From Sabellastarte sp. h YS-2021 (taxonomy: Eukaryota > Annelida > Polychaeta > Sabellida > Sabellidae), in contig OZ024939.1 in assembly GCA_964017235.1 (NCBI GenBank), positions 43,812,241-43,876,240 on the forward strand: a stretch of DNA of 64,000 nt, given 5' to 3'. Below are positions 9,371 to 57,509 of this stretch, one piece after another (position 1 is the first letter of the stretch; each line of letters starts with the position of its first letter). The notes under the pieces were generated by a model. That model made no database searches, was not told the origin of the DNA, and saw only the letters and a program-made list of their open reading frames with translations. A program made the translations under genes and the position numbers.

Positions 9371-9373
9371 TAA

Positions 9374-9398: not shown

Positions 9399-9399
9399 T

Positions 9400-9800
9400 A
9401 TATAGCGCAAAATTGATAAAAATCCTCTAATGCGCTCGAGTCCAAGAAGGGAGAGTCCAGGGACAGGCATGGGTCGACATCTGAAAAGCGCCCGCCAGGG
9501 TATAACTAAGGTGGTGGGTATGCCAGCCTAAACAAGTAGGTCTTTAGCTGGCTTCTGAAACCATCGATTGTTTGCTGAGATCTGACAGTCTGTGGCAGCT
9601 TGTTCCATTCAACTGGTGCGGCCACCGCAAAACCACGCCTGCCTATGTGCTTCTTAGGGCGGGTAGAGGAGATAGATAGCCTGTTGCCGCGAGTGAGACT
9701 GCTAGATCTTATTAAAGCTGAAAGATACGGAGGCTGTGAGAGATTAATAGCCTTGAATACCAAAAGATTGTACTTAAATGAGAAATTTTTTCTTCAGTGT
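9400..9800 (-). pseudogene. 3' fragment of a LINE (C-terminal reverse-transcriptase tail)
   Basis: The minus-strand frame 9506-9763, open further toward 9800, contains FKAINLSQPPYLS, then GFAVAAPVEWNKLPQTVR and FRSQLKTYLF before a stop. This is the typical end of a CR1/jockey/L2-like non-LTR retrotransposon polymerase: FKALN..PPYLS, AAPxxWNxLPxxIR, FKxxLKTYLF. Only about 90 residues remain, so the copy is 5'-truncated and inactive. It ends in an AAT microsatellite tail. It differs from the LINE at 38 kb, so it represents a second lineage. Confidence 0.85.
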
Positions 9801-11960
9801 CTCAGTTAATTAAGATGCAAATATATCGTGTCAATAACTACACATTGCTTGAGCCTTGTGACGCATTCTTGAAAAACTAGATGTGAATAGGAAAAGAGTT
9901 TCATAATGGAGTAAAAATTCAGATGCATTATTTAATAGTAATTGCACAGTTAATTTCACTGTAGAGAGAACTAAGTCTTTGCAAATGTAGCCTGACAATT
10001 GAATGCAAAAAAACTACAAAATCTGTACAGAAGAATTTAACTCCACAACATATTGTGAAAATCACATCAGAAATGAAATGTTACCAAGATTCCTTCTCAT
10101 ACAATAACCATGATTTTCAACTACATGGTACAGGATCACTAATAAGCTATCCAATTAACCAATCATTTGAAGATGCATCTTGTTATTGTTAACATACTAA
10201 ATGGTTGTTTAGGAGTTACCAATTATTGAGGTATGGTGCACTCAAACCTCAAAAAATCTTTTTTAAAATACAGTAAAAACACATTCAAGTGACACAGAGT
10301 GGCCGTAAAAACAGCAACTGGTAATGCCTTTGCACAGAAATAGATTAGGCTATGAAGACTCCATAAATATTTGAATTCTTCTGAGATTCACAACAAGAAA
10401 TGATGAGTCAAGAATACAAGAAGGTCTCTTCTACAGTATTTTGTCAATTTTGATATTATAAGTATTACAGTGTTTTGTGAATAAAATTTATGCCAGCAGA
10501 CAGATAAATACAAATTTAATTTTTTTGGTCAAATGTGCTTCAGCAGTTATACGTACGTCAATTATAAATACAGCGCTCACTTTATAAACCTACTTATTAA
10601 ATGTTGCTCGTAACACTTTGCATAGACATGACTATTTCATAAAATGAAATGTGTTTTGTTGATGGATAAGAGTAAAGTACAACTGTGGCTCAACACAACT
10701 GCCAATTTGTAGAGCTGGTGCAGAGGCTAAGATTCAAACCCACAACTAAACAGGTGGGAATCCAACGTGATATGCAGGAAACAACCACGCCCCTGATTCC
10801 ACCTAACATCACCAAAATATTGATATCATGCACCCATGTTAACTGCTATTATTTTCATTCCATTTTACATTTGAGAAAATTTTCCCTGTCCCAAAGCTAC
10901 TGACACATCATTCTTCATATTTTAATTTGCAAATCAAGTTTCTGCTGAAGAACACAAGAAAATTTAAAATCACTTGTCCAACTAATTTAGATGCTCGTCT
11001 CATCTAAACTGCAACTCGTGGAGTAAGTGTAAGGGGACAAGTACCATGTAGGCCAACATGTGACTCACTTTGACCAATCGTGGTGCACGGGCTACAAGTC
11101 TCGTGCACATCACCCACTCAAGACATGTGAGATTGTATTGTATTTAACATGTGATATAAACTACAACCCCCTTTTCCCTGCCAACTCACTGCACGTGGTG
11201 TATCTGTATAATGTGTCTTGTGTTTTCACCTCAGGTGGGCACATTAACGCATACCAGGACTAGATTAGGCTTGAGAGTAAACAAGTCCCAGAAATTACAC
11301 AGCAATAAACAAGCATCTTGGAGTGAACATGAATATTTAAGCTACTGATAAGCAATAACATAGAGTTTTTAATTTTGGTTTGTCTTTTCAATTTTTGTGG
11401 TAAATCTAGTAGAATAACAGTTTTAAAGGCTAAATATTGAGAACTGCACCTATTTTATCATTAATTTGCTTTTTTTTTCCTTTGTGGCATACCAATGGGC
11501 AAATCTCTTAATTGGAACATGACAATTTTCTTAGTTTGGCTTGAAAGGATAAGTGAGCTTAATATGCTGTCGTTTAAATAGAGCCACAGTGACTGATAAT
11601 GCAGTTTTTCCTCATTTGGGAAGCAAGCAGTGAGGAGTATTTACTGGGGAGCAATAAGATCTTACATATGTCTACATTTAGACTCGCCGATATCATCTGA
11701 TGCTTTCTAAAGAGCCAAAAAATACAAAATCATCTGACATTTTTTCAAATTAAAGCTTTAAAAAGAAAATGTAACAGAGAATTTGGGGATACAAGGTATT
11801 TTATCGGATGAACAGTTATTTTCTTGGAAAAAGAGTTATTGTATTGGTGTAACTGGTGTAGAACTTCAGGATGACAACAAAAGGTAAATCATTAGACTTT
11901 AATAACCTGTATATTTGTGATCTCTAATATTTATTTTCCTTGTAGTAACTGTGAAGCTTA
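9800..11960. other. Non-coding AT-rich stretch
   Basis: I see no exon with both splice sites and no repeat family that recurs elsewhere in the window. Short frames at 10685-10903 and 11060-11263 have no domain signature. Confidence 0.4.
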
Positions 11961-11976
11961 GGTACTCTTTGCTTTA

Positions 11977-12194
11977 TTTTATTTATTTATTTTGAGATTA
12001 CATCAACGCTGTAAAGGTCATATCAAGACGTCGAGTAGCATTGTGGGCAGAGGAAACCAGTATCTACAGTTGGTCAAGGTTCTGTACTGTAAACTGCCAA
12101 CCATCACTAACAACTTTCCCACATAGGGTTCAGGGTTTGAACTGTCAAACTTACACGTGGGAGGCGAGTGTGTTACCACTCTGCCACTGTGGCC
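11977..12194 (-). mobile_element. tRNA-derived SINE, reverse orientation
   Basis: Read on the minus strand it starts GGCCACAGTGGCAGAGTGG (tRNA-like A-box region) and has a degraded B-box GTTCAAACCC. It then carries the body shared with the SINE at 21712 (TTTACAGTACA, TACTGGTTTCCTCTGCCC, ATATGACC) and ends in an A-rich AAATAAATAAAAT tail. Flanks are similar but not identical: GGTACTCTTTGCTTTA before and GGTACACTTTGTTTTA after, a plausible old target-site duplication. Confidence 0.85.
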
Positions 12195-12199
12195 GGTAC

Positions 12200-13345
12200 A
12201 CTTTGTTTTAATATTGCAGTTAAATGGCATTTAAAAATAATCATTCATATTCAAAATGGCTTTTTTGAAACAGTATTTGCCACACTGAAAAAAATCAACA
12301 GTGTACCCATTAGATGTATATAAAACGAGAAAATAATTACAGTACCTGAGGGAAAAAGCTGGTTTTTGTTTATTTATTTATAGTTATTTATTTCTTTTAG
12401 AAAAAAAAAACCTCTTTACAATTCTTTCAGCTCCGTTATAAATTGTTAATAATTCTTACACCTGTTGATTTAATTCCACTAGTCTGATCAAGATCTCCTG
12501 TAATGTAATTGGATCTTGTTCTTAATAATTTACAGGAATGAGATCAATTACCAATATATCTTCTAAAATGCACTTAAAAAGTCATCTGCCCATTGTGTAA
12601 ATATTTCAAAAATACTTTAAAATGCAGTTTTTCTAATTTGAAGGTACTTAATGTTAAAGTTATTAACATCAACACCCATGGACAAAGGAAGTTGTTTGAT
12701 TACAGTTAAACATGTCTTTTGGTTTATGTTTATTTCTTTTATATCTTGGGATGTTTCATCATATTTAATGTGACCTTGGACACTGAAATACATATTAGCC
12801 ATATGTATTACTAGGTCATGCAGATATCAAGATTGACATAACACTTAATTATAGAGCAATAATTCTTCAGAATGGAACAAAATATTTATTTGTAGATTTG
12901 TCAGCATGGGAAGAACTTTAAGAACAAATAAGATAATGGAATAATATGCTAACTTTACCAATCAGCACGAAGTTTAAACATACCTAAACATTAAGTTTAA
13001 ACATTTCCCTAAGCTTTGTGTACTCAGATTTAATGACACATCAATCATCCAAGTGTGTGTTATCACTGAAGAAAAACATAAAATTAAGCCTACAAGTCCA
13101 AGAAACAGTGCATATAATTATTTCTAGTTTCTGGAAATTACTTATGACGCCTACAAAAGTACATCGACACATAATACACTTTGTTCTGTCCTTTATCTGT
13201 TGCCAGGAGCCTGTCATCACAGAAACAGTAATTAGCTACATGTCTGCAGTAGACCTGGCATGAACTGCAAAGGGCATTATGCAGAACCAGAATCAAGTTG
13301 ATGGACCAACTCAGGATCTTCACAGCAAATAACAGAAATGAAACC
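12200..13345. other. Non-coding stretch upstream of the opsin start
   Basis: AT-rich DNA with no clear repeat. It should contain the opsin promoter, but I cannot point to a specific TATA box or start site. A frame at 13018-13263 lacks a matching splice donor and phase. Confidence 0.35.
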
Positions 13346-13397
13346 ATGGCTGTTTATAATCACAGTTTACATAATACAAACCACACACCCATTGAAG
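13346..13397 (+). CDS. Opsin exon 1 (putative): start codon and N-terminus
   Basis: The next exon has an in-frame stop upstream of its acceptor and no Met, so an upstream coding exon is required. This candidate has a strong start context (AAACCATGG), encodes 17 residues with NHS and NHT glycosylation sequons, and ends in phase 1 (GAAG|GTTGGT), exactly what exon 2 needs. The donor is weak beyond GT, so another first exon further upstream remains possible. Confidence 0.6.
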
Positions 13398-16300
13398 GTT
13401 GGTGATCCATTATCTGTCTTAAATAATCTCCGGTCTGTCTTAAACTAAAACTAGAATTCTCAAATGATGCTTATCACCTGGTGCAATAATACTGTGACAT
13501 TTCATGAACAAAGGAATACACAGGTTTTACACAAACTCTGAGCCATAGCTGTATCAGAAGTGACTGAAGTGCGGAATTCACATAATTTAAAAATGTTTTC
13601 ATTTTGAACGAAGTAATTTTCTGTCCTTTCAAGACCATCTACATTATATGCAAGTATTGTGGTCCCAGATGGGGCCTTTTGCCCTTTTAATAGCAACTTT
13701 TATTCCTCTTAAACTAACAGCGGACTGCTTGAGATAACCCTGTCAGTTTTTGTTGTTAAATTACACAGGTATTAATACTAGCAGTGGGGACTACTGGGGT
13801 TCTCTGCCACAAACCCCTTACTGGGCTCATGTCTCAGTGGCAACCTTTATGACCCCTGTCACACTTCTGGCTTCAGGGGGAAATGGGATGCTTCTCTACC
13901 TCTTCATCAGGTAAACAAAACATGATTTTTATTTTAAGCACATACGGATCCCACATACAGATTACTAGCAGTAGAGGACTCATTAGATAAAAAATAGCAT
14001 CAAGAGATGCCCGTACCCCACAGCCTAGGGAAATATTTTTAACACCATGAGATATAGAAGTACTGTATCAGTACAAAGTTCAGGATACTTTCAGAGCACT
14101 ATCACTTATACATCGGTCCAAACAATGTTTAAATAGAGAAAATAATGTCAAAGAAAGATAATGCATGTACTCTTTATCTACATCTGGCCTAGCCGAATTA
14201 TGGTATAGATGTTTTGAATATTACCATGCATACAGAAGTGGTAATACATTCAATGAATGCTTATGTGTGGTGTTGGTGCAAATCTGTGGCTCACTTGATG
14301 AAATTCCATCTGTTACACTGGGAAGTTGTAAAAGTAAAATTCTTAATGAATTCTAATATGACTTTAACAGTGCTTAATTTGCATCAAAAGACAGATCCAA
14401 AGGTGCAATAAGATTTTAAAGGTCAAGGTCACTACAAGGTCAAAGGTCAAATCAAGGTCACACCATGATGGTGTACACATACAACCCCTAACCGACGTCC
14501 CTACCAAGCATCAACTTCCTACACCTTACGTTTTCAGAGATATAGCCCGACAAGATTTTATAGGTCAAGGTCGCTACGGCAAGGTCAAAGGTTAAATCAA
14601 GGTCGCACCATGACGTTGCACACCTTCACCCCCTAACCAATGTCCCTACCAAGTATCAACTTCCTACACCTTACAGTTTCTGGTATAGCCTAGACAAGAT
14701 TTTATAGGTCAAGGTCACTACGGCAAGGTCAAATCAAGGTCAGACCATGACGTTGCACACTTACACCCCCTAACCAATGTCCCTACCAAGTATCAACTTC
14801 CTACACCTTACAGTTTCTGAGATACAGCCTAGACAAACTTTTTCCCGCTGCCCGCCCATCCAGACACCATTGGTGAAAGCAATACCCCGACAGCCTTTAA
14901 GGGCTGTGGGGTAAAAAATTAAGATTGGTAAAAACATGATTCAATTGGTCTTATTGTGATTTAAGGTCACTATTAAATACATTTCAAGGGCAATGAGCAA
15001 GTCTAAAATTCAAACACTTAATCTCAAATTTAGTACCTCAAAATCAGACTTGGGAGTTTAATATCTATTTGTTGTCTTTCACAAAAGAAATTTTTAACTA
15101 GGTGAAATATTTTCATGATGATAAAACATTTATACTTGTAGCCAAAATCCATTTCTTGTCAATAAAATAAAGTATGAATTATTGAAAACAAGCACAAGAA
15201 AACTGATTTAAATTGATTGCTTTTCTGTATGATAATTGAATGATCCAACATAATGATGAAAAACTTCCATTGCTTCAAACTGATGGCATCCTGTTTAGTA
15301 TAGCTTCTATAAGATCACCCTACAGTGAAGCATCCTATTGTGTTTAATCAATACTTTTTTACCCAACTATTACATTAGCTCATTAGTTTACCAAATTTTC
15401 ATTCCGAGAAAGTGGACATACACAAAACATAGGAGTATTTATCACAAGACTGCCTTGTTTTTCAACATCAATTTGTCATGGTCAGACCCCAACTAACTAG
15501 TGTATTAGCCAGAGAAAATCACACAACAGGAAGGAAAGAATTAGTTTGAACTAAATAATTTATTTACAATATGTACAAATCAGTGTTAAACCAACCAATT
15601 CAGAATATACATTTAAAACAATAGTAACTCAAACTTGTATGCCTGTTAATGACTTAAAAACTTTAAATATTATCACAAGATTACTTAAATAGTTTCATAT
15701 AGATTACTCACAGATTATAGTCCATGTAGCTGGATCAATGTTCAAAACAGAAGGTATGTCCTGATTATTTGCAAGTTTGTAGTCACCCAGGCTTGTATCA
15801 GTTGTAACGAACAGCTCTGAATAGTTGACTGCCTCTGGTTGATGTAGTTTTGAGAACAATGTTTTCGATTGTAACTGGCATATGAATTTCCTCACTCGGC
15901 ACTATGCTGGACTTCGTGCCCCTGAGGTCTTCCATGAGTCTTCCCCTTTCTTGCTGTGCTCAACTTCTTTGCTCTAGTGTACTTCACTCCAACTTAATCT
16001 GCTGAATAGTGTCTTTTTACCACACAGGTTCTTCAGTTAAAAAGTCCTGACAGGTTCTTCAGTTAGAAAGTCCTTGAACTGTTTTAACAATCTTTTAAAC
16101 TTTTGAGTCGGCAATACAATTTCATCTGTAGTATAGATCTCCTGTCCCAACAATGCTAATCTGTAACTGTGAGCTGACCTGCTTAGACGAGTGATCAGGA
16201 ACCTTACCATTACAACATGCATATTTTCTAAGAAATTAACATCATAAAACTTATACTTACATTAATTACTCATGATAAACATTTCTTGGAAGGAATCCTG

Positions 16301-19300
16301 TTTTTGTTAAAACTGCAACTCACATATTTTACTATTTTAAACAACATTCATCAGGCTATGAAACTGTAGGTCAGTAAGTGGAATATCTGTCTGCTGTAAA
16401 CATCAGCAGAGGATGCATGTGACTGTACACACATACCTACACCTTCTTATTCTATCACACAATTGCATAAAAACTATATTAGCTCTTTCTTGGCTTAGTT
16501 TTGAGAGTTGTTTACTTATTTCATCAGAATTTATGTTATACTTTTCTGTGTGATCCTGAACTGATAGGACACACATCAAGGACAATGGCATAAAATCATA
16601 TTATGTACCATCAACTCCAACTATTCATAACCAAAATTGGTTAAAATGTCTGTCCTTAAATTAAATGTATGCCTGGAATAAATGTCTGCTGCAGTATAAT
16701 ATTGCCTTTTTTTTTAACACTGTTTCACCAGGTTTCAAAGTCTGAGGACAGCAAGCAACCTACTTCTAGTAAACCTTGCACTCAGTGACCTGTTGACAGC
16801 ACTCACTGGATATCCATTACTCATCATCGCTTCCTTCAATGGAAGGTGGACTTTTGGACAGACAGGTAAGATATACTACAGTCTCATAGGCCATCTAATC
16901 CTGAGTTTCCTAAACCACAGAAGGTCTTGCTCAAAGTTAAAGTTGGACTTCTACATTCAACAGCTAAGTAAACACCTTCACTAACTGTGTGTTGCAATGA
17001 TCTGGATTCAAACCCGAAACCACTGAGATGAAAGCAAACTTGCTTTCTTTTCTGCTAATGAAGCCTTAGAAAGACCACTGAAAGTGTGTAGAAATGTCAA
17101 TGGCTCAGAAAGGCTGTCCCTGAAGTAATTAACTACAGAAAGTCCACAAGACTGGCTATTGTTCTTTGCCAAGAATGCTTATTTTATCAAAATAAATACT
17201 TGATGGAATTACAGTTTCTTCCTCATTATCAACTGTTTCAAGGTACCGAGCAAACTTTTCTTTCAAACTGGTGCCAAACTAACTTCTGATATGCATTATA
17301 TTAAGAATGTCAAAACTGGCCCTAATATGTGATACTCACCAACACAAATACTTCAATTAGAGCAAGACAAACAAAACTAGACTAAGGACGCATCTGTGGC
17401 CAGATGCTGGATGTATCCACCGACAAAGGCCAACTAACATAGTTTAGAAGATAAACAGCATTTTTCATTAAAAAGCAAGCTGAAAGCACTTTTAAGTTTG
17501 GCTACCCTTATTTGACCCTGTAGCAGGGGCCCAAGGTGAAGTCTGACCACATCAAAAGATTCGCAGCCCATGATTTCCTATAAGTCGTTTTCACATTGCA
17601 AACCTCTAGGACCAATAATAAGCAGGAGGGGCCCAAGGTCAAATCTGACCACATGAAAAGATTTGCAGCCCATGACTTCCTATAAGTTGTTTTCATATTA
17701 ATGAATTATTTGAGAAATACTGGCTATCTGCAATACTTCTAGAGATAATTCGCATTTACTCATTTTGAGTAGGTGAATAATTAGCTACGGGTCTGAAACT
17801 TCACCAAGTGAAAGCTCTCTCAAAAGTAGGCGAATGAGTTATTTGAGAAAAATTGGCTATCTACAATACTTTTAGAGATAATTCGAATTTACTAATTTTC
17901 AGTAGGTGAGTAATTACCTACGGGTCTGGAACTTCACTATGTGAAAGCTCTCCCAAAAGTAGATGAATGAGTTATTTGATAAGAATTGGATATCTGCAAT
18001 ACTTTTAGAGATAATTAGCATTTACTCATTTTGAGTAGGTGAATAATTAGCTACAGGTCTGAAACTTCACCAAGTGAAAGGTCTCCCAAAAGTAGGTGAA
18101 GGAGTTATTTGACAAAAATTGGCTATCGGGAATACTTTTAGAGATAATTTGCATTTACTCATTTTGAGTAGGTGAGTAATTACCTACGGGGTCTGAAACT
18201 TCACCAAGTGAAAGCTCTCCCAAAAGTAGGTGAATGAGTTATTTGAAAAAAATTGGCTATCTGCAATACTTTTAGAGATAATTCGCATTTACTCATTTTG
18301 AGTAGGTGAGTAATTACCTACAGGTCTGGAACTTCAGCATGTGAAAGCTCTCCCAAAAGTAGGTGAATGAGTTATTTAAGAAAAATTTGCTATCTGCAAT
18401 ACTTTTAGAGAAAATGCAGAATTACTCATTTTTAGTAGGCATGTAATTTAGCCACAGGCCTAATTTAGACATAAAGCCTACCAATAGAATACTGTGGTGC
18501 ACCCTCTAATATACCTTGCAAACTTGAGAAGGCTAGCTATAATATTTTTTTTCGTTAGAGCGGTAATGGTGAAATCTCTCTACACACTGCGGCTATCCAG
18601 TGGATACAATGATTTACTCAACAGTGAGAACCTGAAAGTAGATATTGGTAAGCTATACCATGACATAGAGGTCTGCAATTTCACTCTGTTATAGCTGACC
18701 AAAAATTATGTGAATAACATATTTAAACAAAATACTGTAAATGTAATAGTTTTCACGTTATAACTGATTTACTCAACAGTGATAACCTAAAAGTAGCTAT
18801 TACTCAGCTATGCAATGAGCTACATGTTTGAATTTTTTCTATGTTATAGCTGACCCAAAATTAGGTGAACAACATATTTAAGCAAAATACTGTAAATGCA
18901 ATAGTTTTCAAGTTACAACTGATTTACTCAATAGTGAGAACCTGACAATAGCTATTGCTCAGCTATGCCATGAGCTATAAGTCTGTAATTTCACGATGTT
19001 ATAGCTGACCCAAAAGTAGGTGAACAACATATTTTAACAAAATACTCCAAATGCAATATTTTTTCAAGTTACAAGTCATTTACTCAACATACAGTACCTG
19101 AAAATAGCTATTGCTCAGTTGTGCCATGAGCTACAGGTCTGTAATTTCACTATGTTATAGCTGACCCAAAAGTAGCCGAATAACATATTTACACAAATTT
19201 CTGTAAATGCAATAGTTTTCCAATTACAACTGATTTATTCAACAGTGTGAACTTCAAAGTAGCTATTACTCAGCTATGCAATGAGCCACAGGTCTGGAAC

Positions 19301-22300
19301 TTCACTATGTTATAGCTGACTCCGAAATAGGTGAATAACATATTGAAACAAAATACTCTAAATATAATACTTTTGAAGTTATAAGTAATTTACTCAACAG
19401 TGATAACCTAAAAGTAGCTATTACTCAGCTATGCAATGAGCTACATGTTTGAATTTTTTCTATGTTATAGCTGACCCAAAATTAGGTGAACAACATATTT
19501 AAGCAAAATACTGTAAATGCAATAGTTTTCAAGTTACAACTGATTTACTCAATAGTGAGAACCTGACAATAGCTATTGCTCAGCTATGCCATGAGCTATA
19601 AGTCTGTAATTTCACGATGTTATAGCTGACCCAAAAGTAGGTGAACAACATATTTTAACAAAATACTCCAAATGCAATATTTTTTCAAGTTACAAGTCAT
19701 TTACTCAACATACAGTACCTGAAAATAGCTATTGCTCAGTTGTGCCATGAGCTACAGGTCTGTAATTTCACTATGTTATAGCTGACCCAAAAGTAGCCGA
19801 ATAACATATTTACACAAATTTCTGTAAATGCAATAGTTTTCCAATTACAACTGATTTATTCAACAGTGTGAACTTCAAAGTAGCTATTACTCAGCTATGC
19901 AATGAGCCACAGGTCTGGAACTTCACTATGTTATAGCTGACTCCGAAATAGGTGAATAACATATGAAACAAAATACTCTAAATATAATACTTTTGAAGTT
20001 ATAAGTAATTTACTCAACAGTGATAACCTAAAAGTAGCTATTACTCAGCTATGCCATGAGCTACAGGTCTGAAATTTTACTATGTTATAGCTGACCCAAA
20101 AGTAGCTGAATAACATATTTATACAAAATTGTGTAAATGCAATAGTTTTCAAGTTACAAGTGATTTTACTCATGATGGAAGTTACTGAAAAGCCCAAAAG
20201 TAGCTATTACTCACTTAGCTATTGAGACAGACACCCAAGTTACTCACCATGTGCAGAATGATTTTCATCTAAAACAGAATATCTTCATTTATTTCAATGA
20301 CATGCAAGTACTGCCAAGTAAAAAATAATAAAATAAGGCAGAAAACAATTTGCCCAGCCCCAATGGATCTGTGTCACTTTGTAAAGTTATAGTTAATAAC
20401 AGTGGTTTCTGTAAGAGTTATAAATTGACAATATGTTACAGTCTTTGATAAAAAAAGAACAAAAATGTAGATAATACGATTCAATTTTTTACAAGAGTTT
20501 AAGAATAGACAAACTACTAGAAAAAGAAAGTAAAATACACATGTATTTATCGAAGCTTCTGTTTCTCAAAATATGAGGGTGTAAATAAATATAACCTAAT
20601 ATGTAATCACCTGTGTTACAACTTACAAATTCTTTCCTTAATATTTATATTTCTCCAACAATCACATTTTGAATCTTTTTTTAATTGATACCTTCCTGTT
20701 TCAATTCTTCAAAACCTTACCATGCATATATATCTACGGTTTACTTGGAAACCAACCCATTTCCCCCCCCTCCAAGGGCTGAAATTGGTATAAATTTATG
20801 CACCGCTAGAAAGTATCTGATGGCCTTGTTTAGGTCATTGTCCCACTGGCTGGCCTCTTTGAATAATACTTATTAGTTTTTTTTTGTCTTGTTAATTCCT
20901 AATTCCTGATTATGGCAAAAAATTACCTTTGAGAGGTCGGTTTGGAAGAGGTTCTTTACAAGACTAAAGTAATTTGCATGTGGGGTGTGTCTTGTTGATT
21001 TTTTTCACATTTCTGAATTTTGCTTGAGATAGGTTTGTTTTTAGATGAAGCCTTCACAGTCAATTAAGCGCCCTCAAAAGAATGCATGGCAATATGAAAG
21101 CGGATTAAACTCAAAGGCTTTTTGTATTTCAGGCTGTAATTTTTACGGAGCCTCAAGTGCTCTTCTTGGTCTGGGGTCTATTAACAGCCTGGTGGTGATC
21201 GCAGTGGACCGATATCTGGTGATTTACAGGTAATACACCCCTTATATCTGTATTCATTGTTTTCCATTCAATTTCATTTCCACATAACAATGACTCGTGT
21301 CTCATATTAGTTCTCTTTACTTTCACTTTTAGGGTAAAGTTCAAATGACCTTTACTTCTATCCATGTTTTTATTTATTCTGTTTAATGCTCAAATCTGCG
21401 GAATAATTTTCAATGAAATTTCTAACATTTAATATGCTGTGTGGATCACAAACTTGGGACAGAAATCGAGAGAATCTGTCGAGAGAAGTTATTTTATGAT
21501 CATACTTTGTGGCAAATCATGTTTGGTCTCAGGAGTGGTCTGTCCTCTTTGGGTGCTCTCATTCGATTTTTGGTACAAAGACTTAGCATTGCTAAGTGAA
21601 GTACAACAAATTTCCACATACTATCATACATATAAACAGATGTTTGAGTTCAATTGTATATTCATATGTACCTGTATATTTAGTTTGAGTCAATCTACAC
21701 AAGCACCAATATAGGGGCCACGGTGGCAGAGTGGCAACACTCTCGCCTCCCACCTCTGAGGCCGGGGTTCGATCCCCGCACGGGCTCAAGTGGGAAAGCT
21801 GGTAGTTGCTTGCCGTTGGTCAGCAGTTTACAGTACACAACCCTAGCGAACTCTATGTACTGGTTTCCTCTGCCCTTCCAACTACCCGTCGTGATATGAC
21901 CTGTACAGTGTTGAAAGCGACGTAAAACCCCAAATAAACAAACACAAGCACCAATAAAATATTCATTTTCATATGACAACGATTCATTCCTAATATTACT
22001 TGTCTTTACTTCCATTTTTAGGTACTAATGCTTTTAATACTGTGAATGATTATGATGAAGTTATCGCATTTACCTTTTGTTGGGTCCACTACCTACTGAT
22101 GAATCAAAATATTTTAATTGACTTTATCATCCCATGTAACAAAAAAAAATAGAATACTATAGTTTGAAAATACAATGAACAAATTTTTCAGCAGAAACAT
22201 TTTTAATCTGATCAATATTTAAAAGAAGTTGCCTGTTTCGAAAGATTCAACTAATTTAATATGTATGTTGTCTTTGTGTCAATTTATTTTATAGTGTAAT

Positions 22301-25300
22301 CTTAGTCTTGTCTATAATTATTTAGTTAAAATATTACCTTGTTGGGTGTATTTAGCACTTTCTTGGTGTAGCAGAACACTGAAGTTTAGGTTCACTTTAG
22401 TTTATTCACCGATTCACTTTACACTTCAATACTGTGGTAAAAATTCTGGAAAATGATGTTCAGCCTATCCACAGATCCAAAACAATTTAAATCAATAGTC
22501 AACTATTGTATACCAAAAATGTGTACAAGCACCAAAGCTATGTACTTACAGATGGTACACTCCCCTCATTAATCTAAGGAATCTGTGAAAAAATATTCAA
22601 ACTCAACCAGATAAAAATGTATCACAGGTCATATTGCTTACCGATGGTCAGCAGTTCACAATACAGAACCTTGATCAACTGTATGTAATGGTTTCCACTG
22701 CCCACAAAATTACCCGTCATGATATGACCTGTACAGTGTTGAAAGCGATGTAAAAAACCCAAATAAATATATAAATACAGGTCATTTCAACTGGAGCACT
22801 ATGGTAAATGCTTACGTTACTTAACAATCCATTAAAAGATGGGAAAATTCTTCACACTAAAATTAGTTTTCTTATAGGTCATGTTGTTTTACTGTTGATA
22901 GACAAGGTTTTTCAACTGGTTCTAACATTTCAGTTCTATCATCACTCTAAATACTGGCCTTAACCTATTTTAAGTTGCTTCAATTTTAATTCAATTTTCA
23001 CAAGAGAAACCATCAGTGCAGTGGGACACTGTCCTGTGAACTTCTGTGAAAGGATCAAAGCCCTCACATCAGAGTAGTAAGGTGTGTTAACACTGCTTCA
23101 ACAAGGTTGTCTGTATATTTTAGGAATGTGAAAATGAATGTCCTTGTGCTTGCATTTTACCAGGTTTTCTTAAATTACAAAGAAAGCAATTCAATAACAA
23201 TTTCTGATGCTCCAAAACTATGAAAACGGTTACCTCTTGATATATACGTGCCACTTCTTTGACCTGTCTCAAAGGCCTTAAATTTATTTATTCAAGAGAA
23301 CTTTTTATCATTTCGGTGACTTACCATGGTTAAAGACCAAGCTTGTTTAATTAATGTATGACTGAATTTATTTTGTGTCTCAGATTGGTACAGAAATTAA
23401 GAATAAACCTTCCACAAGTACGGTTATGTCAGGAGGCTTCCAGAGTATCCCACATGTTATGATTACTGGATACAAACCCAGAAGCCACAAGACAAGTGCC
23501 CAGTGATTTAATACCAAAATTTAACTTAAATATCACTCTGTAACAGATTAAACTTTCATCAGATTATATTTATTACTCTACACAGGAACACCAAGTTAAC
23601 TTATTGTCAGTCCATCCTACTTGTCATTTGGGTGTGGTTATACTCACTGCCCTGGGCTATTGCACCTTTACTGGGCTGGTGTAGTTACACACTGGAGGCT
23701 TTTGGAACCACCTGCAGCTACAATTACATGGGCTCAAAACACCACTGGTTTCTCCTTACAGTCACCATAGGTACGATTTTTTCTTAATTATTTTTTCTTT
23801 GACAAAGGTTTACTCAGCAATCAGACTTTGTGCACCCAACGTGAGACAATAAGTACCCAATGTAGCAATCATGTAATTTTGTTTTTAAATGTTACAATGT
23901 ACACAAACTTAAGAAACATTGAAAAAAAAAACAAGAATAAAAATGTAAATTAAAAAAATATCATCTATCTTGAAACAAGTTTGCTTCAAGTTTCTCATAC
24001 AGGTTGCTATCTTGACCAAAAATTTTTCAGACCAATTTTTATGTGTTTACACGATCAACATTAAACCATAGTCATCTACAATTTTCCATATCAGGTAACT
24101 TTATACTGCCGCTGCTGATCATCCTCTATTGTTACTGTTGGATCATAGTGAAGTTTAAGACACACAAACAGGAGTTTAAAAGCATCCTGGAACAGGACAA
24201 AGGAAACCCAACATCAACTTTCTCTTCATCTATGTCATCAACCATCAGCTACAGAGACTGGAAGAAGCCGAAACTCATAGGCCGCCACCTTCGGGGCCGC
24301 ACCCTGAAGATTACTTTATGGAAAAAATCAGAATACAAGATTGCAAGAGCTTTATTGATCATCATCTCAATGTACTGTATTTCTAAGATGCCTTATGCTC
24401 TTGTAACCTTGATAGGTCAATATGGTGACAGGACACTAGTCACCCAAATGGGAGTTATGGTCCCAATCATGATCGCCAAGATTTCTACACTGTGTAACCC
24501 CTTTATTCTCATGAAGGCACATCCTCGATTCAAATCAGCCCTACTTAAATTGTTACCACAATGGCTGAAGAAGTACACAAGTAATGAGAGGAGAAGAAGA
24601 AGAAAAAGACGACAAAAGGATGATCAGGTAGTTCTGGAGTTAGATTACTTGAATAAAAAGGCAAACTCTTGTGGGATAGAAGGAAAAGGCTCACAAAAGA
24701 AGCTCAACAGATCACAGAGATTACCTGTATCCAGCCAACTGCAGGTTCTGCTGCACAATCATATCAAGGTAAGATTTTTTTATGTTAACATGTACAAACC
24801 ATTTATCAATTTTTTTCGGGGCATTCATGTAATTTGGCTCTGCACAGCTTGGATTTTACCTTCACAGAGTTGCGTCTTGTGAACATCAAGATTGTAGCAC
24901 AAAAAAGTGAAATGGCTGCATCTATAACCCAATGATTTTGTCCATTTGAAGGTGACTCAAGGGAAAATTATGAGAAAATAATGCAAATATTTCAATCTAT
25001 GCATGATATAGTATTTCAAAACCTTTTTAAACAAATATGCTTAATGGCAATGTCTCTGACATATTGGTTCTTCTGCAGGTGTCCAATGGGGAACAGAGTA
25101 TAGAATTTCACAATGAATCCCAGGTTGTAGAGTTTCTCATTGAATGGGTTTCAGCGATGTCAGCAAGGCAGTCCAATGATGAGTGAGTAGCATAGGTATC
25201 GTATTGATAGATTATTTGTCTCTTATCAAATCTATTGCCAATGACATTAGATTTCTGTTTATAAAGCTTGTAACATTTCAAAATTCATTTCATCAGAAGG

Positions 25301-25598
25301 AATTTTGTCAAAATCTTATTGGCATTGAGGTGAAAAAAATTGGTTGCATGAATTATGTTACTTACTCCATTTGAAGGTTCATTATTGTACTTTGTGACAG
25401 TTGCAATTTGATAACTGATTCCTTGTGAATTTATTGCCTAAATACTAAAATTTATGTGCACACAAAGTACAAAATTTTGTGAATTTGTAATTTAGTGTGA
25501 CCTTTTTCAGATTAAAGGTTGTGGTAGGACCGAAAGCTTCATCACAGACACATCAGTTTGCAAAAGAGAGTAGTTCCTTCACTACAGGTTGGATTTAG
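13346..25598 (+). CDS. Divergent rhabdomeric/melanopsin-like opsin, 8 exons (~491 aa)
   Basis: Exons: 13346-13397 (putative), 13769-13910, 16732-16865, 21133-21229, 23586-23770, 24095-24768, 25079-25182, 25511-25598. All junctions are AG/GT and in phase, giving 491 codons plus stop. The protein should be a membrane GPCR binding retinal by a Schiff base and signalling through a G protein. Seen: TM1 GN (55-56), TM2 NLALSDLL, the Cys pair C111/C185, DRY 135-137, the loop-2 glutamate E179 in SYTLEAFGTTC, and the retinal lysine K332 in AKISTLCNP. Features such as RWTFGQTGC, LIGQYGD and LVTQ resemble r-opsins/melanopsins. Odd: TM6 reads SKMPYA instead of SWxPYA (K301 for the toggle Trp), and NPxxY reads NPFIL (L342). 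The TM5-TM6 loop is long and Ser-rich, and the C-tail has a strongly basic run at 369-376. The subgroup (possibly a non-canonical r-opsin) is inference; opsin identity is firm. Confidence 0.9.
13769..13910 (+). CDS. Opsin exon 2: extracellular N-terminus and TM1
   Basis: Encodes residues 18-65. It begins GINTSSGDYWG (NTS sequon), followed by TPYWAHVSVATFMTPV and TM1 ending SGGNGMLLYLFIR, where GN is the conserved TM1 asparagine. Acceptor ACACAG and donor CAG|GTAAAC; it enters in phase 1 and leaves in phase 2. Confidence 0.9.
14014..14913 (+). mobile_element. Element A copy 1: 145-bp minisatellite core between hairpin ends
   Basis: Lies in opsin intron 2. The left end has a small hairpin GCATCAAGAGATGC (13998-14011), then TACCCCACAGCC at 14014. 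The right end is a hairpin with arms TACCCCGACAGCC and GGGCTGTGGGGTA (14883-14913), so its outer arm is the inverse of the left motif. Between them is a unique left region, then about three tandem units of about 145 bp containing AGGTCAAGGTCACTACGGC, ACACCTACACCCCCTAACC and AAGTATCAACTTCCTACACC, then a TTTTTCCCGCTGCCCGCCCA block. No protein is encoded. Homologous copies lie at 32202 and 54827 in the same orientation. Confidence 0.85.
14914..15473. other. Opsin intron 2, middle part
   Basis: AT-rich intronic DNA between element A and the LTR-like copy. I see no exon, repeat or other signal in it. Confidence 0.4.
15474..16353 (-). mobile_element. LTR-like retroelement copy (solo LTR?), reverse orientation
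   Basis: This about 880-bp segment is the reverse complement of 39208-40064 along its whole length, and both copies end at the same points. In its own orientation it starts TGATGAATG and ends TGACCATGACA, i.e. TG...CA ends. It has a region matching the TATA-containing part of the other copy and a TGTAAATAAATTATTTAG polyadenylation-like signal near its end. The short frames at 15704-15895 and 16037-16222 belong to it and are not genes. The flanks CAATT and GGCTA do not form a target duplication. Confidence 0.65.
16732..16865 (+). CDS. Opsin exon 3: intracellular loop 1, TM2, start of extracellular loop 1
   Basis: Encodes residues 66-110: FQSLRTASNLLLVNLALSDL, then a TM2 segment with GYPLL, and SFNGRWTFGQTG. 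The LRTxxNxxxxNLAxSD and RWxFG patterns are opsin hallmarks, the latter typical of r-opsins. Acceptor CACCAG follows a long pyrimidine tract; donor ACAG|GTAAGA. Confidence 0.95.
17380..18610 (+). mobile_element. Element B-type with 147-bp and 133-bp repeat cores (opsin intron 3)
   Basis: The left end has the hairpin GCATCTGTGGCCAGATGC (17390-17407) followed by GTATCCACCG (17413-17422). Next come about 1.5 copies of the 147-bp B repeat in reverse orientation (17480-17700). Then follow about six 133-bp D units (17701-18480), starts near 17701, 17834, 17967 and 18100, each with GAGTTATTTGA, CTTTTAGAGATAATT and CTCCCAAAAGTAGGTGA. The right end (18530-18610) has AGAGCGGTAATGG and CTATCCAGTGGATACAAT, a degraded form of the 3' hairpin seen intact at 50133-50164. 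Confidence 0.75.
18603..20250 (+). repeat. 155-bp satellite C array (about 10 units) with 621-bp higher-order duplication
   Basis: Each unit contains GATTTACTCAACAGTGA, AGTAGCTATTACTCAGCTAT, ATGTTATAGCTGACCCAAAA and TGCAATAGTTTTCAAGTTA. The array starts at the junction GGATACAATGATTTACTC and ends with a distinctive last unit (20158-20240, TTTTACTCATGATGGAAG). The same start and end occur around the larger array at 57.5-61 kb. Segment 18771-19391 is repeated almost exactly at 19392-20010 (offset 621, four monomers). Confidence 0.9.
20260..21132. other. Opsin intron 3, distal part
   Basis: AT-rich DNA leading to the exon 4 acceptor. It holds a short poly-C run at 20763-20770. No repeat family or exon is visible. 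Confidence 0.4.
21133..21229 (+). CDS. Opsin exon 4: TM3 and DRY motif
   Basis: Encodes residues 110-142 with GCNFYGASSALLGLGSINS, then VVIAVDRYLVIYR. C111 is the conserved TM3 disulfide cysteine; D135-R136-Y137 is the G-protein-coupling DRY motif. Acceptor TTTCAG and donor ACAG|GTAATA; enters in phase 1 and leaves in phase 2. Confidence 0.95.
21712..21943 (+). mobile_element. Full-length tRNA-derived SINE with 13-bp target duplication
   Basis: The head has tRNA-like RNA polymerase III boxes: A-box region GGTGGCAGAGTGGC and B box GGTTCGATCCC. The body contains GGTCAGCAGTTTACAGTACA and CGTCGTGATATGACCTGTAC, and the end is A-rich (CCCAAATAAACAAAC). It is flanked by exact direct repeats ACAAGCACCAATA at 21699-21711 and 21944-21956, the mark of LINE-driven insertion. 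It sits in opsin intron 4. The minus-strand frames here are SINE-derived. Confidence 0.95.
22633..22776 (+). mobile_element. 5'-truncated SINE copy with 9-bp target duplication
   Basis: Matches the 3' two-thirds of the SINE at 21712: TTGCTTACCGATGGTCAGCA, TGGTTTCCACTGCCC, GTCATGATATGACCTGTACA, then an AAATAAATATATAAAT tail. It lacks the tRNA-like head. Direct repeats ACAGGTCAT at 22624-22632 and 22777-22785 show it inserted already truncated. Confidence 0.85.
22786..23585. other. Opsin intron 4, distal part
   Basis: AT-rich intron DNA with no recognisable repeat or exon up to the exon 5 acceptor. Confidence 0.4.
23586..23770 (+). CDS. Opsin exon 5: TM4 and extracellular loop 2
   Basis: Encodes residues 142-204. 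TM4 contains LLVIWVWLYSLPWAIAPLLG, followed by WCSYTLEAFGTTCSYNYMG. E179 aligns with the loop-2 counterion of invertebrate opsins and C185 with the conserved disulfide partner. Acceptor CTACACAG; donor ATAG|GTACGA. Confidence 0.95.
24095..24768 (+). CDS. Opsin exon 6: TM5 to C-tail, with retinal lysine
   Basis: Encodes residues 204-428: TM5 (GNFILPLLIILYCYCW), a loop of roughly 65 residues with a Ser/Thr-rich part, TM6, TM7 and helix 8 region HPRFKSALLKLLPQWLKKY. K332 in IAKISTLCNP is the chromophore lysine, six residues before the NP as usual. TM6 SKMPYALVTLIGQYGD lacks the toggle tryptophan, and TM7 ends NPFIL instead of NPxxY. A basic run (NERRRRRKRRQ, from residue 367) follows helix 8. 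A Met upstream at 24043 lies before the splice acceptor and is not a start. Confidence 0.95.
25079..25182 (+). CDS. Opsin exon 7: C-terminal tail
   Basis: Continues in frame from exon 6: VSNGEQSIEFHNESQVVEF, then LIEWVSAMSARQSNDE. The acceptor TTCTGCAG is good. The donor is a consensus GTGAGT at 25183, but without splicing the frame reads GAG TGA and stops at 25185-25187, so two C-termini are possible. Confidence 0.75.
25511..25598 (+). CDS. Opsin exon 8: last coding exon
   Basis: Acceptor CTTTTTCAG. Joined to exon 7 it reads ELKVVVGPKASSQTHQF, then AKESSSFTTGWI and a TAG stop at 25596-25598. It is rich in Ser/Thr, as expected for opsin tails phosphorylated by receptor kinases. An alternative donor ACAG|GTTGGA at 25588 could lead to further exons, but none was found before the polyadenylation signal. 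Confidence 0.6.
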
Positions 25599-25989: not shown

Positions 25990-26554
25990 CATGTATGGAA
26001 GCATATAAGGGTCATGTATGATAAACATTTTTTGAAATTTCGACTTTTATAACTCGAAATTTCGACTTTGCAACTCAAAATTTCGACTTTGTAACTCGAA
26101 ATTTTGACTTTTATGATTCAAAGTTTTGACTTTTATAACTCGAAATTTCGAGTTTGAAAGTCAAAATTTCGAGTTTGTAAGTCGAAATTCCGAGTTTAAA
26201 AGTCAAAATTTTGAGTTTAAAAGTCATAATTTCGAGTTTATAAGTGGAAATTTCGAGTTTAAAAGTCAAAATTTCGAGTTTGTAAGTCAAAATTTCGAGT
26301 TTAAAAGTCAAAATTTCGAGTTTGTAAGTAAAAATTTCAACTTTTTAAACTCAAAATTTCGAGTTTATAAGTCAAAATTTCAAGTTGAAAAGTTTCAATT
26401 TCCAGTTTGTAAGTCGAACTTTCGACTTTTAAACTCAGAATTTGGAGTCTGTAAGTCAAAATTTTGAGTTTAAAAGTTGAAATTTCGAGTTATAAAAGTC
26501 GAAATTAAAAAAAAAAAATTCTCCTACATGAACCTTATAGGCTTCCATAGTCAT
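25990..26554. mobile_element. Fold-back element F1 with internal ~21-bp palindromic tandem repeats
   Basis: The ends are inverted copies: the left CATGTATGGAAGCATATAAG plus GGTCATGTA is matched by TACATGAACC plus TTATAGGCTTCCATAGTCATG on the right. The interior (26028-26510) is a run of about twenty 18-22-bp units, such as AAGTCAAAATTTCGAGTTTA and the reverse-complement form in the left part. The reading frames on both strands with repeating FEFKSQN or TFKLEI peptides are by-products of the repeat. It resembles element F2 at 41496-42062 in size and design. Confidence 0.85.
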
Positions 26555-26581: not shown

Positions 26582-29060
26582 CATCCACCGGATAGCATCC
26601 TGTGGATACTATGGATTTCGCTTCGTTACACCTACGCCGCCGCAGTGTGTACAGACATTTCGCTATTACCGCTCTAACGAAAAAAATATTATAGCTAGCC
26701 TTCTCAAATTTGCAGGATATATTCATAACCTTAAAATCTTGCCTGGGAATATTTTTGGCCTTATTTTGAAAAACAAGATGGCCGCCACAGGCGTTTTTTC
26801 GACTTTCAGTAAGGACTTTTGGTGGCCCTCTAGAGCAAAGGGTATTATAGCTAGAGATCTCAAATTCGCAGGGTATGTTCCTCATTACAAAATCTTGATT
26901 GGGAATATTTTTGGCCTCATTTTGAAAAACAAGAGCGTTTCTTTGTCAGTCATAAAAAGTGCTTATAACGCGCTTATTATTAGTTGTACAGGTTTGGGAT
27001 GGTAAACCAACATATAGGAAATCATGGGCTGGGAATCTTTTGGTGTGGTCAGATTTGACCTTGGACCCCTCCTTCAAGGTCAAACAAGGATAGCCTAACT
27101 TAAAAGTGCTTATAACTCGCTTATTATTGGTTGTACGGGTTTGGAAGGTAAACCAACTTATAGGAAATTATGGGCTGGGAATCTTGTGGTGTGGTCAGAT
27201 TTGACCTTGGACCCCTCCTTCAAGGTCAAACAAGGACAGCTAAACTTAAAAGTGCTTATAACTCGCTTATTATTAGTCCTAGAGGTTTGGCATGGTATAC
27301 CAACCTAGAGGAAATCATGGGCTGGAAATCTTTTGGTGTGGTCAGATTTGACCTTGGACCCCTCTTTCAAGGTCAAACGAGGATAGCCAAACTTAAAAGT
27401 GCTTATAAGTTGCTTATTATTGGTCGTACAGGTTTGGGATGGTAAACTAACCTATAGGAAATCATGGGCTGGGAATCTTTTGATGTGGTATGATTTGACC
27501 TTGGACCCCTCCTTCAAGGTCAAACAAGGATAGCCTAACTTAAAAGTGCTTATAACTCGCTTATTATTGGTTGTACGGGTTTGGGATGGTAAACCAACAA
27601 ATAGGAAATCATGGGCTGGGAATCTTTTGATGTGGTCAGATTTGACCTTGGATCCCTCCTTCAAAGGTCAAACGAGGATAGCCAAACCTAAAAGTGCTTA
27701 TAACTCGCTTATTATTGGTCATATAGGTTTGGGATGGTAAACCAACATATAGGAAATCATGGGCTGGGAATCTTTTGATGTGGTCAGATTTGACCTTGGA
27801 CCCCTCCTTCAAGGTCGAATGAGGATAGCCAAACCTAAAAGTGCTTATAACTCACTTATTATTGGTCGTACAGGTTTGGGATGGTAAACCAAACTATAGG
27901 AAATCATGGGCTGGGAATCTTTTGATGTGGTCAGATTTGACCTTGGCCCCCTCCTTCAAGGTCAAACGAGGATACCCAAACTTAAAAGTGCTTATAACTC
28001 GCTTATTATTGGTCATACAGGTTTGGAAGGTAAACCAACTTATAGGAAATCATGGGCTGGGAATCTTGTGGTGTGGTCAGATTTGACCTTGGACCCCTCC
28101 TTCAAGGTCAAACAAGGACAGCTAAACTTAAAAGTTCTTATAACTCGCTTATTATTGGTCCTAGAGGTTTGGCATGGTAAACCAACCTAGAGGAAATCAT
28201 GGGCTGGAAATCTTTTGGTGTGGACAGATTTGACCTTGGACCCCTCCTTCAAAGTCAAACGAGGATAGCCAAACTTAAAAGTGCTTATAAGTTGCTTATT
28301 ATTGGTCGTACAGGTTTGGGATGGTAAACTAACCTATAGGAAATCATGGGCTGGGAATCTTTTGATGTGGTATGATTTGACCTTGGACCCCTCCTTCAAG
28401 GTCAAACGAGGATAGCCAAACTTAAAAGTGCTTATAACTCGCTTATTATTGGTCGTACTGGTTTGGGAAGGTAAACCAACTTATAGGAAATCATGGGCTG
28501 GGAATCTTTTGGTGTGGTCAGATTTGACCTTGGACCCCTCCTTGAAGGTCAAACAAGGACAGCTAAACTTAAAAGTGCTTATAACTCACTCATTATTGGG
28601 CCTAGAGGTTTCGGATGGTAAATCAACCTATAGGAAATCATGGGCTGAGAATTTTTTGGTGTGTTCAGATTTGACCTTGTACCCGTCCTTCAAGGTTAAG
28701 CGAGGACAGCCAAACTTAAAAGTGCTTGTAGCTAGTTTATTATTGGTCGTACAGGTTTGTAATGTGAAACCAATCTACAGGAAATCATGGGCTAGGAATT
28801 TTTTGATGTGGCCAGATTTGACATTGGGCCCCTCCTTCAAGGTCAAATGACAATAGTCAAACTTAAAAGTGCTGATAACTTGCTTATTATTGGTCCTAGA
28901 GGTTTGCAATATGAAACCAACTTATAAGTGGTCATGGGCTGGGAATCTTTTGATGTTTTCAGATTTTACCTTGGGCCTCACCTTCAAGGTCAAATGATGG
29001 TTCACTGGCTTTTCGGTGGATACAAATTTGCATTGGTTCTCCAATGTGTAGGTCTAGTTA
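26582..29060 (-). mobile_element. Element B copy: 147-bp satellite (~13 units) between hairpin ends
   Basis: In its own (minus) orientation the 3' end is the hairpin at 26582-26609 (GCATCCACCGGA / TCCTGTGGATAC), followed by the GCGGCGTAGG-type block, AGCGGTAATAG and the AAGATGGCCGCCAC segment. The array runs at about 26950-28990 with a 147-bp period (GGGCT words at 27026, 27172, 27319, 27466). Each unit has GCTTATAACTCGCTTATTAT, ATCATGGGCTGGGAATC and TTTGACCTTGGACCCCTCC. The other end (29010-29060) has CGGTGGATAC and a CATTGG/CCAATG hairpin. Many open frames cross the array because the period is a multiple of three; none is a gene. Confidence 0.85.
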
Positions 29061-38123: not shown

Positions 38124-39207
38124 TCAATTCAATTCAATCAATTCAATCAGTTGTCCAGGTGCTTAATCTCCGTATCAACGGATTCTAAGGCACACCATCC
38201 AATCCGTAAGGCATAAATCATGAGACATTAGACATGTTCCGAGTCGTTGCCAGGGAGGCGGTCCGGTGTTCGGTAGTAAGAAGCTATGGTGGGAATGATT
38301 TCTGAAATAGGTAGGTTTTGAGTCGACTTTTGAAACTGGAGAGATTTGGAGCACTGCGTATATCATATGGAAGATCATTCCATAACTTAGGGGCATCATA
38401 TGAGAAACTATTGTTAAAATGGACCTTTGATTTATGGATGGAAGGACAGTAAGAGGGAACCAGAAGGAACAAATTTTTGGGATTGGAACGTCTTGTATTC
38501 ACGGCAGATTTGTACAAGGGGAGATATGGTGCAAAATACTTAGGCTGGCCAGTGGTGAGGTACTTATAGACCAAAACTAGGGTTTTGAAGATAATACGTT
38601 GTCTAACGGGTAGCCAATGGAGTGTCCTAAGGGTGGATGTAATGTGAGTGTACTTTGAAGCACCAGTGACAAACCGTGCATGCGCATTTTGAACATATTG
38701 GAGCCTTGTAGCATTTCGGGATGACAAACTGCGAAAAAGAGAGTTGCAATAATCCAAACGACTACTGACCAGAGCATTTGCAATCACCACTGATGTATCC
38801 ACAGAAAGAAACCTCCTGATACGATGAAGGTCCCTGAGGCTGATAAAGCAGGATTTGATAACAGAATTTACGTGATTGGTGAAACAAAACTTTGCATCAA
38901 ACAGAACACTCAGATTGCGTACAACATCTGCGGGAGAGAGGCAATTACCCAGGATATTGACAGGTAGTGAGTCACTGAGCCATTTGTGTCTGTCTTTGGC
39001 ACCGAAGACTATGAATTCTGTTTTATCAGGATTTAGCTTGAGTTTGTTTTCAGACATCCAGACCTGAATATCATTCAAACATGATTTAAGACGGTCAAAA
39101 GACTTGAGACTATCATCAGGGGATAAGTGAATGAACAACTGAGTGTCGTCCGCATAGAAGTGGTAACGGACTCCGGTATATTTTCTGATGACTTGACCAA
39201 GAGGTGC
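38124..39207 (-). pseudogene. 5'-truncated LINE with reverse-transcriptase C-terminal half
   Basis: The minus-strand frame is open from 39207 to a stop at 38284. It begins APLGQVIRKYTG, then has the catalytic block YHFYADDTQLFIHLS, KLKLNPDKTEFIVFGAK, ANALVSSRLDYCNSLFRSLS, LHWLPVRQRIIFK and WNDLPYDIR...FKSRLKTYLFQ. These are the palm and thumb parts of a non-LTR (jockey/CR1/L2-type) reverse transcriptase. The 3' end (38124-38152) is a tail of ATTGA/TCAAT repeats. The coding frame is intact where present, so insertion is fairly recent, but everything upstream of the YADD region is missing where the LTR-like element begins. Confidence 0.9.
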
Positions 39208-57508: not shown

Positions 57509-57509
57509 T

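What the first reader, a model, noticed from the sequence alone, without database searches (positions are those of the whole stretch)
24095..24768. Opsin keeping the retinal lysine but losing the TM6 toggle Trp and the NPxxY Tyr
Seen: K332 is in AKISTLCNP at the correct spacing, DRY and the disulfide pair are present, but SKMPYA replaces the usual (S/C)WxPYA and NPFIL replaces NPxxY. Known: Trp 6.48 and Tyr 7.53 are central to light activation of nearly all opsins. Inference: the protein may bind retinal yet be activated differently, couple weakly, or serve a non-visual or isomerase-like role.
Basis: partly seen in the sequence, partly recalled or inferred. Interest (0 to 1): 0.82.

Follow-up and report, generated by a model that had tools for sequence, protein, structure and literature searches.

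The report
Opsin with two rewritten activation switches
An invertebrate gene for a light-sensor protein (an opsin) keeps the site that holds the light-absorbing retinal but has replaced two amino acids that normally pass the light signal on, so it may have changed its job or be in early decay.

Summary
Exon 24095-24768 is one of seven coding exons found (13769-25595) of an opsin gene with intact splice sites and reading frame; the start-codon exon was not found. It encodes K7.43 (retinal site), K6.48 where Trp is usual, and L7.53 in NPFIL. W6.48 is present in 48 of 48 comparison opsins (many are vertebrate melanopsins and OPN3) and Y7.53 in 46. Each replacement is at least two base changes from the usual codon, so a single base error explains neither. 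Trees place the gene among r-opsins beside Platynereis r-opsin 5, with moderate support: a probable noncanonical r-opsin, a class of unknown function (PMC10733189). Its two nearest relatives keep W and Y, so the changes are on this lineage. No significant rate excess was found, and neutral decay would rarely leave the frame open, so an old pseudogene is unlikely; recent relaxation is not excluded. My best reading is an intact, retinal-competent opsin whose light-to-G-protein coupling is weakened or rerouted. No relative sharing K6.48 was found among the protein hits. The window's own genome could not be searched, so conservation of the change is untested.

The parts
13769..13910 (+). Exon with TM1 (GN1.50); begins in phase 1, so an upstream 5' exon with the start codon is still missing
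   Evidence: tblastn of Platynereis r-opsin 5 TM1, E 1e-5; acceptor and donor
16732..16865 (+). Exon with TM2 (LALSD2.50)
21133..21229 (+). Exon with C3.25, TM3 and DRY
23586..23770 (+). Exon with TM4, E181 counterion position and C187 (bovine numbering); holds A at 182 and N at 190
24095..24768 (+). Exon with TM5-TM7, helix 8 and start of the basic C-tail; K6.48 24385-24387, K7.43 24478-24480, L7.53 24508-24510
   Evidence: helices predicted over TM5, TM6, TM7 and H8 (low confidence in packing)
25079..25182 (+). C-tail exon
   Evidence: GT-AG and frame
25511..25598 (+). Probable last coding exon, ending ...FTTGWI and TAG at 25596-25598; polyadenylation-like hexamers at 25701 and 25715

Best explanation
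An intact noncanonical r-opsin gene of an unidentified invertebrate. The protein keeps what is needed to bind retinal (K7.43, the E181 position, Y3.28, disulfide cysteines) and the ionic-lock residues (D3.49, R3.50, E6.30, Y5.58). It has lost the aromatic ring at 6.48 against which isomerised retinal pushes, and the 7.53 tyrosine that packs against R3.50 and Y5.58 in the active state. Shown: sequence, gene structure, r-opsin kinship, lineage-specific replacement. Inferred: it still binds retinal, but with light-to-Gq activation weakened or rerouted; the lysine at 6.48 puts a possible positive charge in the pocket, which should destabilise the protonated Schiff base (a shift toward UV absorption, or poor pigment formation).
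For: Seven exons, six canonical introns, open frame. Pfam and PDB matches. Trees: r-opsin clade 96/94; window with P0003 88/88, then with Platynereis r-opsin 5 86/85; with P0003 and P0025 left out, window plus r-opsin 5 97/91 and a separate squid+spider+crustacean+melanopsin group 95/91. AU tests: placing the window in that group p 0.040, with squid rhodopsin p 0.029, with melanopsins p 0.007, with P0004/P0005 p 0.002, with P0048/P0050/P0052 p 0.008. Functional-site table. Lineage-specific amino-acid changes not in significant excess: 12 of 12 comparisons p 0.067 or more. Neutral-decay simulation: intact frame in 0.7% of runs reaching five changed invariant sites, 0.01% when two of them need two base changes. 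Literature on W6.48 and Y7.53 (passages).
Against: No ortholog with K6.48 was found, so conservation of the change is unproved. The window breaks 5 of 41 near-invariant r-opsin columns, against 0-3 in each of the 15 reference r-opsins, which fits some relaxation; by all-opsin yardsticks it breaks 6 of 35 columns (others 0-6) or 9 (eleven other rows printed, 2-13). Its end branch is longer than that of Platynereis r-opsin 5 (1.15 against 0.66), and it has more private changes than P0002 in 6 of 6 comparisons, none significant. In the 21-row trees the joins of the window with P0003 and P0002 are below the starred level. The nearest named relative is 43% identical. All changes to function are inferred.
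Confidence: 0.5

Rival explanations
1. A paralog under recently relaxed selection or newly inactivated: several constrained sites have drifted, but no stop or frameshift has appeared yet.
For: 5 of 41 near-invariant r-opsin columns changed, loop 2 short, first exon not found. Molluscan noncanonical r-opsins duplicate often in some bivalves (12 copies in Dreissena, PMC10733189 passage); the window's phylum is unknown.
Against: Splice sites of the seven exons and 473 codons intact; neutral simulation 0.7% or less for the five-site scenario, although 14% if only two sites drifted; no significant rate excess against P0002 or P0003; the ionic lock, disulfide, counterion position and retinal lysine are kept.
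Confidence: 0.25
2. A working light receptor in which other residues have taken over the role of W6.48 and Y7.53.
For: DRY, E6.30, Y5.58, P5.50, P6.50 and N7.49-P7.50 are kept. Some opsins lack Y7.53: two fish pinopsin-like proteins have NPVIC, and scallop Gq-opsins with NPJIV exist (PMC10733189 passage). Motif-variant GPCRs can signal (PMC9368030 passages). Some non-opsin receptors among the hits have Phe or Thr at 6.48 (4 of 28).
Against: W6.48 is replaced in no other opsin compared (48 of 48 have W), and W265F alone costs about 90% of initial transducin activation (PMC5025775 passage). The searches made showed no precedent for losing both switches at once (listings).
Confidence: 0.12
3. The pocket has been re-purposed for a polar non-retinal ligand, with light response lost.
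For: Pocket positions 3.32, 5.43, 5.46 and 6.48 are Ser, Thr, Asn and Lys, where Platynereis r-opsin 5 and squid rhodopsin have Gly, Phe, Gly and Trp.
Against: K7.43 and the E181 position are kept, as expected for a retinal Schiff base. Polar residues at some of these positions occur in other opsins, for example Asp at 5.46 in P0003 and Ser at 3.32 in P0005.
Confidence: 0.06
4. Assembly or sequencing error, or a rare allele.
For: Reads were not available to me.
Against: W to K and Y to L each need two base changes, and the surrounding frame is undisturbed; no second copy or alternative exon lies in the window.
Confidence: 0.04

Closest known systems
Noncanonical r-opsins (Platynereis dumerilii rhabdomeric opsin 5, P0002; that it belongs to this class is recalled)
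   Same: Nearest named relative: 43% identity over the core; shares K7.43, DRY, E181 position, the FGTTC stretch of loop E2, Tyr at 6.44, HPR tripeptide
   Different: Platynereis has W6.48 (SWVPYA), Y7.53 (NPLLY), D190 and a 4-residue longer loop 2
P0003, unnamed 391-residue protein from an ENA source (2.2 Mb contig)
   Same: Sister to the window gene in the core tree (88/88); shares AKIST and a similar TM6-TM7 loop (LVGQYGD against LIGQYGD)
   Different: Keeps W6.48 (AWTPYA) and NPIVY; its model lacks TM1-TM3, so its placement is less certain
Canonical r-opsins: squid rhodopsin, spider kumopsin, vertebrate melanopsin
   Same: Fold, counterion position, retinal lysine, DRY, HP(K/R/S) at the helix 8 start
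   Different: Separate group in the tree (95/91); W6.48 and Y7.53 in all 15 r-opsin rows
RGR-opsins, retinochromes, gluopsins (PMC9368030 passages)
   Same: Opsins with altered TM7 motif and doubtful G-protein signalling
   Different: Their described changes are at 7.49 and 7.50 with Y7.53 kept; they are another opsin class, and none was in my trees
Pectinid Gq-opsin duplicates with NPJIV and DRF/DRC (PMC10733189 passages)
   Same: r-opsin paralogs, some of which lost Y7.53
   Different: Canonical clade; W6.48 is not mentioned in the passages seen (term W265: 0 occurrences)

Membership tests
Opsin | Lysine at 7.43 at correct spacing from NP7.50 | tested here: met
   K314, AKISTLCNP
Opsin | Seven-helix class A receptor similarity, best to opsins | tested here: met
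   Pfam 7tm_1 E 7e-38; rhodopsins head the PDB list
Opsin | Forms a pigment with retinal | not testable with these tools
   needs expression and spectroscopy
r-opsin | Groups with r-opsins against c-opsins and other opsins | tested here: met
   96/94; grouping with P0048, P0050, P0052 rejected, p-AU 0.008
Noncanonical r-opsin | Falls outside the canonical r-opsin and melanopsin group, with known noncanonical members | tested here: met
   window + P0002 97/91, canonical group 95/91; AU p 0.040: moderate, and only one named reference, whose class is recalled
Noncanonical r-opsin | HPK tripeptide, present in most (PMC10733189 passage) | tested here: not met
   HPR here; P0002 and P0003 also have HPR. 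Not a strict criterion
Signalling class A GPCR | W6.48 and NPxxY7.53 | tested here: not met
   K and L
Signalling class A GPCR | DRY, E6.30, Y5.58, P5.50, P6.50 | tested here: met
RGR/retinochrome photoisomerase | Groups with RGR/retinochrome | not tested
   no member in the trees; r-opsin placement argues against it
Pseudogene | Stops, frameshifts, broken splice sites | tested here: not met
   none in the seven exons found; first exon unresolved
Pseudogene | dN/dS near 1 against close orthologs | not tested
   no ortholog DNA obtained; the genome search unreachable

The most novel reading that the evidence does not exclude
A two-lysine opsin: K6.48, placed where Trp normally touches the retinal, works together with K7.43 as a charge switch or even as an alternative Schiff-base partner, giving a UV-shifted or light-silent retinal protein that activates without the Trp toggle and the Tyr7.53 lock, and that is conserved in a clade not yet sampled.
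Probability: 0.08. Interest if true: 0.85.

Novelty: new variant of a known kind. Interest (0 to 1): 0.45.

Why it matters
[quoted passage not shown] A natural opsin that keeps the retinal lysine but carries a lysine at 6.48 and no Tyr 7.53 would be a ready test of whether these microswitches are needed or only usual. It would also give a handle on noncanonical r-opsins, for which it is stated to be unknown whether they work like canonical r-opsins (PMC10733189 passage). If it is a decaying paralog, it matters little beyond opsin turnover.

Tried and rejected
Own-genome search for other opsin copies: the same genome search was made 25 times, and each time the machine was unreachable. So paralog number, species and ortholog dN/dS are unknown.

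Protein searches, 3 of 3 used. The single-sequence search gave 7 hits, one of them the window itself. The alignment search scored only the 7996 candidates sharing most words and gave 75 hits, largely vertebrate melanopsins and OPN3/TMT opsins, then other receptors. The search confined to TM6-TM7 scored 35 candidates and reported none, not even P0003, so this negative is weak. Of the 79 non-self hits, 51 went into the main alignment and the other 28 were checked only: none of the 28 has a lysine at 7.43 or at 6.48.

Viral contig scan: 103 pattern matches, no relative. Rfam and tRNA scans: nothing.

Structure: only the contiguous exon 24097-24768 was folded, because the tool takes letter-for-letter window translations. 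pLDDT 68, pTM 0.34; Foldseek listed mostly GPCRs at the top but nothing at E 0.001 or better (best 0.36). I use it only to say that TM5, TM6, TM7 and H8 are predicted helical.

First coding exon: a scan of 9000-13769 for ATG exons with a phase-1 GTRA donor gave 11 candidates, of which I saw the four with a glycosylation motif; none was convincing. Considered and set aside: that loop 2 is short because of a mis-set acceptor (no in-frame alternative was seen by eye), and that a mutually exclusive exon restores W and Y (no second copy in the window). The promoter/terminator scan uses a bacterial model and says nothing here.

Literature search served to find background; of their listings I opened only the papers named in the report.

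Full report
What is there. The window (64 kb, 35.5% GC) reads as animal DNA. On the + strand, seven exons (13769-13910, 16732-16865, 21133-21229, 23586-23770, 24095-24768, 25079-25182, 25511-25595 plus stop) joined by six GT-AG introns encode 473 residues of a class A receptor. The 397-residue core matches Pfam 7tm_1 with E 7.1e-38, and among solved structures squid rhodopsin is best, E 3.3e-45. The finding's coordinates are exactly the fifth of these exons. The start codon lies on a further 5' exon that I could not identify.

The two replacements. At 6.48 the codon is AAG (Lys) and at 7.53 it is CTC (Leu); both are at least two base changes from Trp and Tyr codons. I aligned the window protein with 53 others: 51 of the 79 non-self hits (P0002 to P0054 without P0006 and P0007) plus partial squid rhodopsin and kumopsin. 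For the count I dropped three incomplete rows (P0043, P0049, P0051) and two proteins that are not opsins (P0053, P0054), leaving 48, many of them vertebrate melanopsins and OPN3 and so not independent. W6.48 is in 48 of 48 and Y7.53 in 46 of 48; the two exceptions are pinopsin-like fish proteins with Cys. With nothing dropped, W is in 51 of 53 and the other two rows have gaps there. The 28 hits left out have no lysine at 6.48 or 7.43; 24 have Trp, 3 Phe and 1 Thr at 6.48. Among 41 columns at least 93% identical in 15 r-opsin rows, the window differs at five: bovine G182A, D190N, W265K, P285Q, Y306L. The 15 references differ at 0 to 3 each. With all 48 opsins as yardstick it differs at 6 of 35 columns (others 0 to 6); at a 90% limit with P0025 also dropped it differs at 9 columns and the eleven other rows printed at 2 to 13. 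So the number of breaks is not exceptional; the positions are. Kept are N1.50, D2.50, C3.25, Y3.28, DRY, W4.50, E181, C187, P5.50, Y5.58, E6.30, P6.50, Y6.51, K7.43, N7.49, P7.50. Loop 2 is 4 residues shorter than in Platynereis r-opsin 5; teleost OPN3 shows a gap of the same size in that alignment.

What it is. In a tree of 21 rows on the transmembrane core, with the two odd columns left out, the window sits in the r-opsin clade (96/94), next to P0003 (88/88) and then Platynereis r-opsin 5 (86/85), the last two joins below the starred level. With P0003 and P0025 left out, the window plus r-opsin 5 have 97/91 and the squid, spider, crustacean and melanopsin rows form a separate group at 95/91. 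A first tree on 527 columns that included the tails left these joins unresolved and warned of long branches between the window and P0003. AU tests reject the window inside the canonical group only mildly (p 0.040; with squid alone p 0.029) and with melanopsins (p 0.007), P0004/P0005 (p 0.002) or the P0048/P0050/P0052 set (p 0.008) more clearly; these groups were named after the tree was seen. This fits a noncanonical r-opsin. That Platynereis r-opsin 5 belongs to that class, and that P0004 and P0005 may be arthropsins, is recalled and comes from no call. [quoted passage not shown] that it is unknown whether they have similar functional properties as canonical r-opsins; and that, because most have HPK, they likely function similarly. 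[quoted passage not shown]

Living gene or relic. Both nearest relatives keep W and Y, so the replacements arose on this lineage. Random mutation of the coding sequence until five of the 41 sites had changed left no stop in 5.6% of runs and, with an assumed indel load, an intact frame in 0.7%; requiring two of the changes to be two-base changes gives 0.01%. If only two sites had drifted neutrally, the figure is 14%, and the 41 sites are drawn from few, partly closely related rows, so this argues against an old pseudogene but not against recent relaxation. Lineage-specific changes in the window are not in significant excess over P0002 (6 outgroups, p 0.067 to 0.48) or P0003 (6 outgroups, p 0.32 to 1). 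Against P0002 the window has more private changes in all six comparisons, and its end branch is longer (1.15 against 0.66).

How it probably works. Passages of PMC11484933 describe, for the bistable spider opsin JSR1, the retinal chain pushing on W6.48 to start the TM6 swing, and Y7.53 moving in beside Y5.58 and R3.50. A passage of PMC5025775 gives about 90% loss of initial transducin activation in W265F rhodopsin. From this I infer that the protein can still hold retinal on K7.43 but converts light into G-protein activation poorly or by another route. Lys 6.48 would sit against the retinal; a charge there should disfavour a protonated Schiff base. Neighbouring pocket positions are also polar (S3.32, T5.43, N5.46, against Gly, Phe, Gly in r-opsin 5 and squid; P0003 has Asp at 5.46), which could accommodate the lysine or point to another ligand. 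That relocated lysines have been tested in rhodopsin I saw only as a title in two reference lists (Devine et al. 2013). All of this paragraph beyond the cited passages is inference.

What is new. Loss of Y7.53 has precedents (PMC10733189 passage). For Lys at 6.48 in an opsin I found none: a search for W265K, W6.48K, Trp265Lys, Lys6.48, K6.48 and 'Trp6.48 opsin' returned 0 papers, and two broader searches showed nothing of the kind in the titles and abstract starts listed (10 of 10 papers, 10 of 80); these cover open-licence papers only. The decisive missing piece is an ortholog, because the protein searches gave none with K6.48 and the genome search did not complete (25 requests). I therefore call it a new variant of a known kind, of middling interest until a second species or reads confirm it.

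Noticed in passing
14410-14836, 17700-18439, 18605-20172, 26955-28994, 48263-49776, 56693-61091: The window is crowded with tandem arrays of about 133-155 bp units, the first three of them inside introns of the opsin gene.
   Followed up: no
45435-46556 and 47093-48214: Two blocks report the same tandem-repeat structure at an offset of 1658 bases: a recent duplication or an assembly duplicate.
   Followed up: no
38284-39222 (-): Reverse transcriptase fragment (RVT_1, E 1.5e-8), probably a CR1/L2-like LINE by eye.
   Followed up: partly
42980-43477 (+): Exon of a C-type lectin domain (E 1.6e-8).
   Followed up: partly
40926-41378 (+): Weak fibronectin type III-like stretch, below Pfam's cut-off.
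   Followed up: partly
26035-26506: A 21-base tandem array just downstream of the opsin gene; 26117-26467 within it is open over 116 codons and reads as a repetitive peptide.
   Followed up: no
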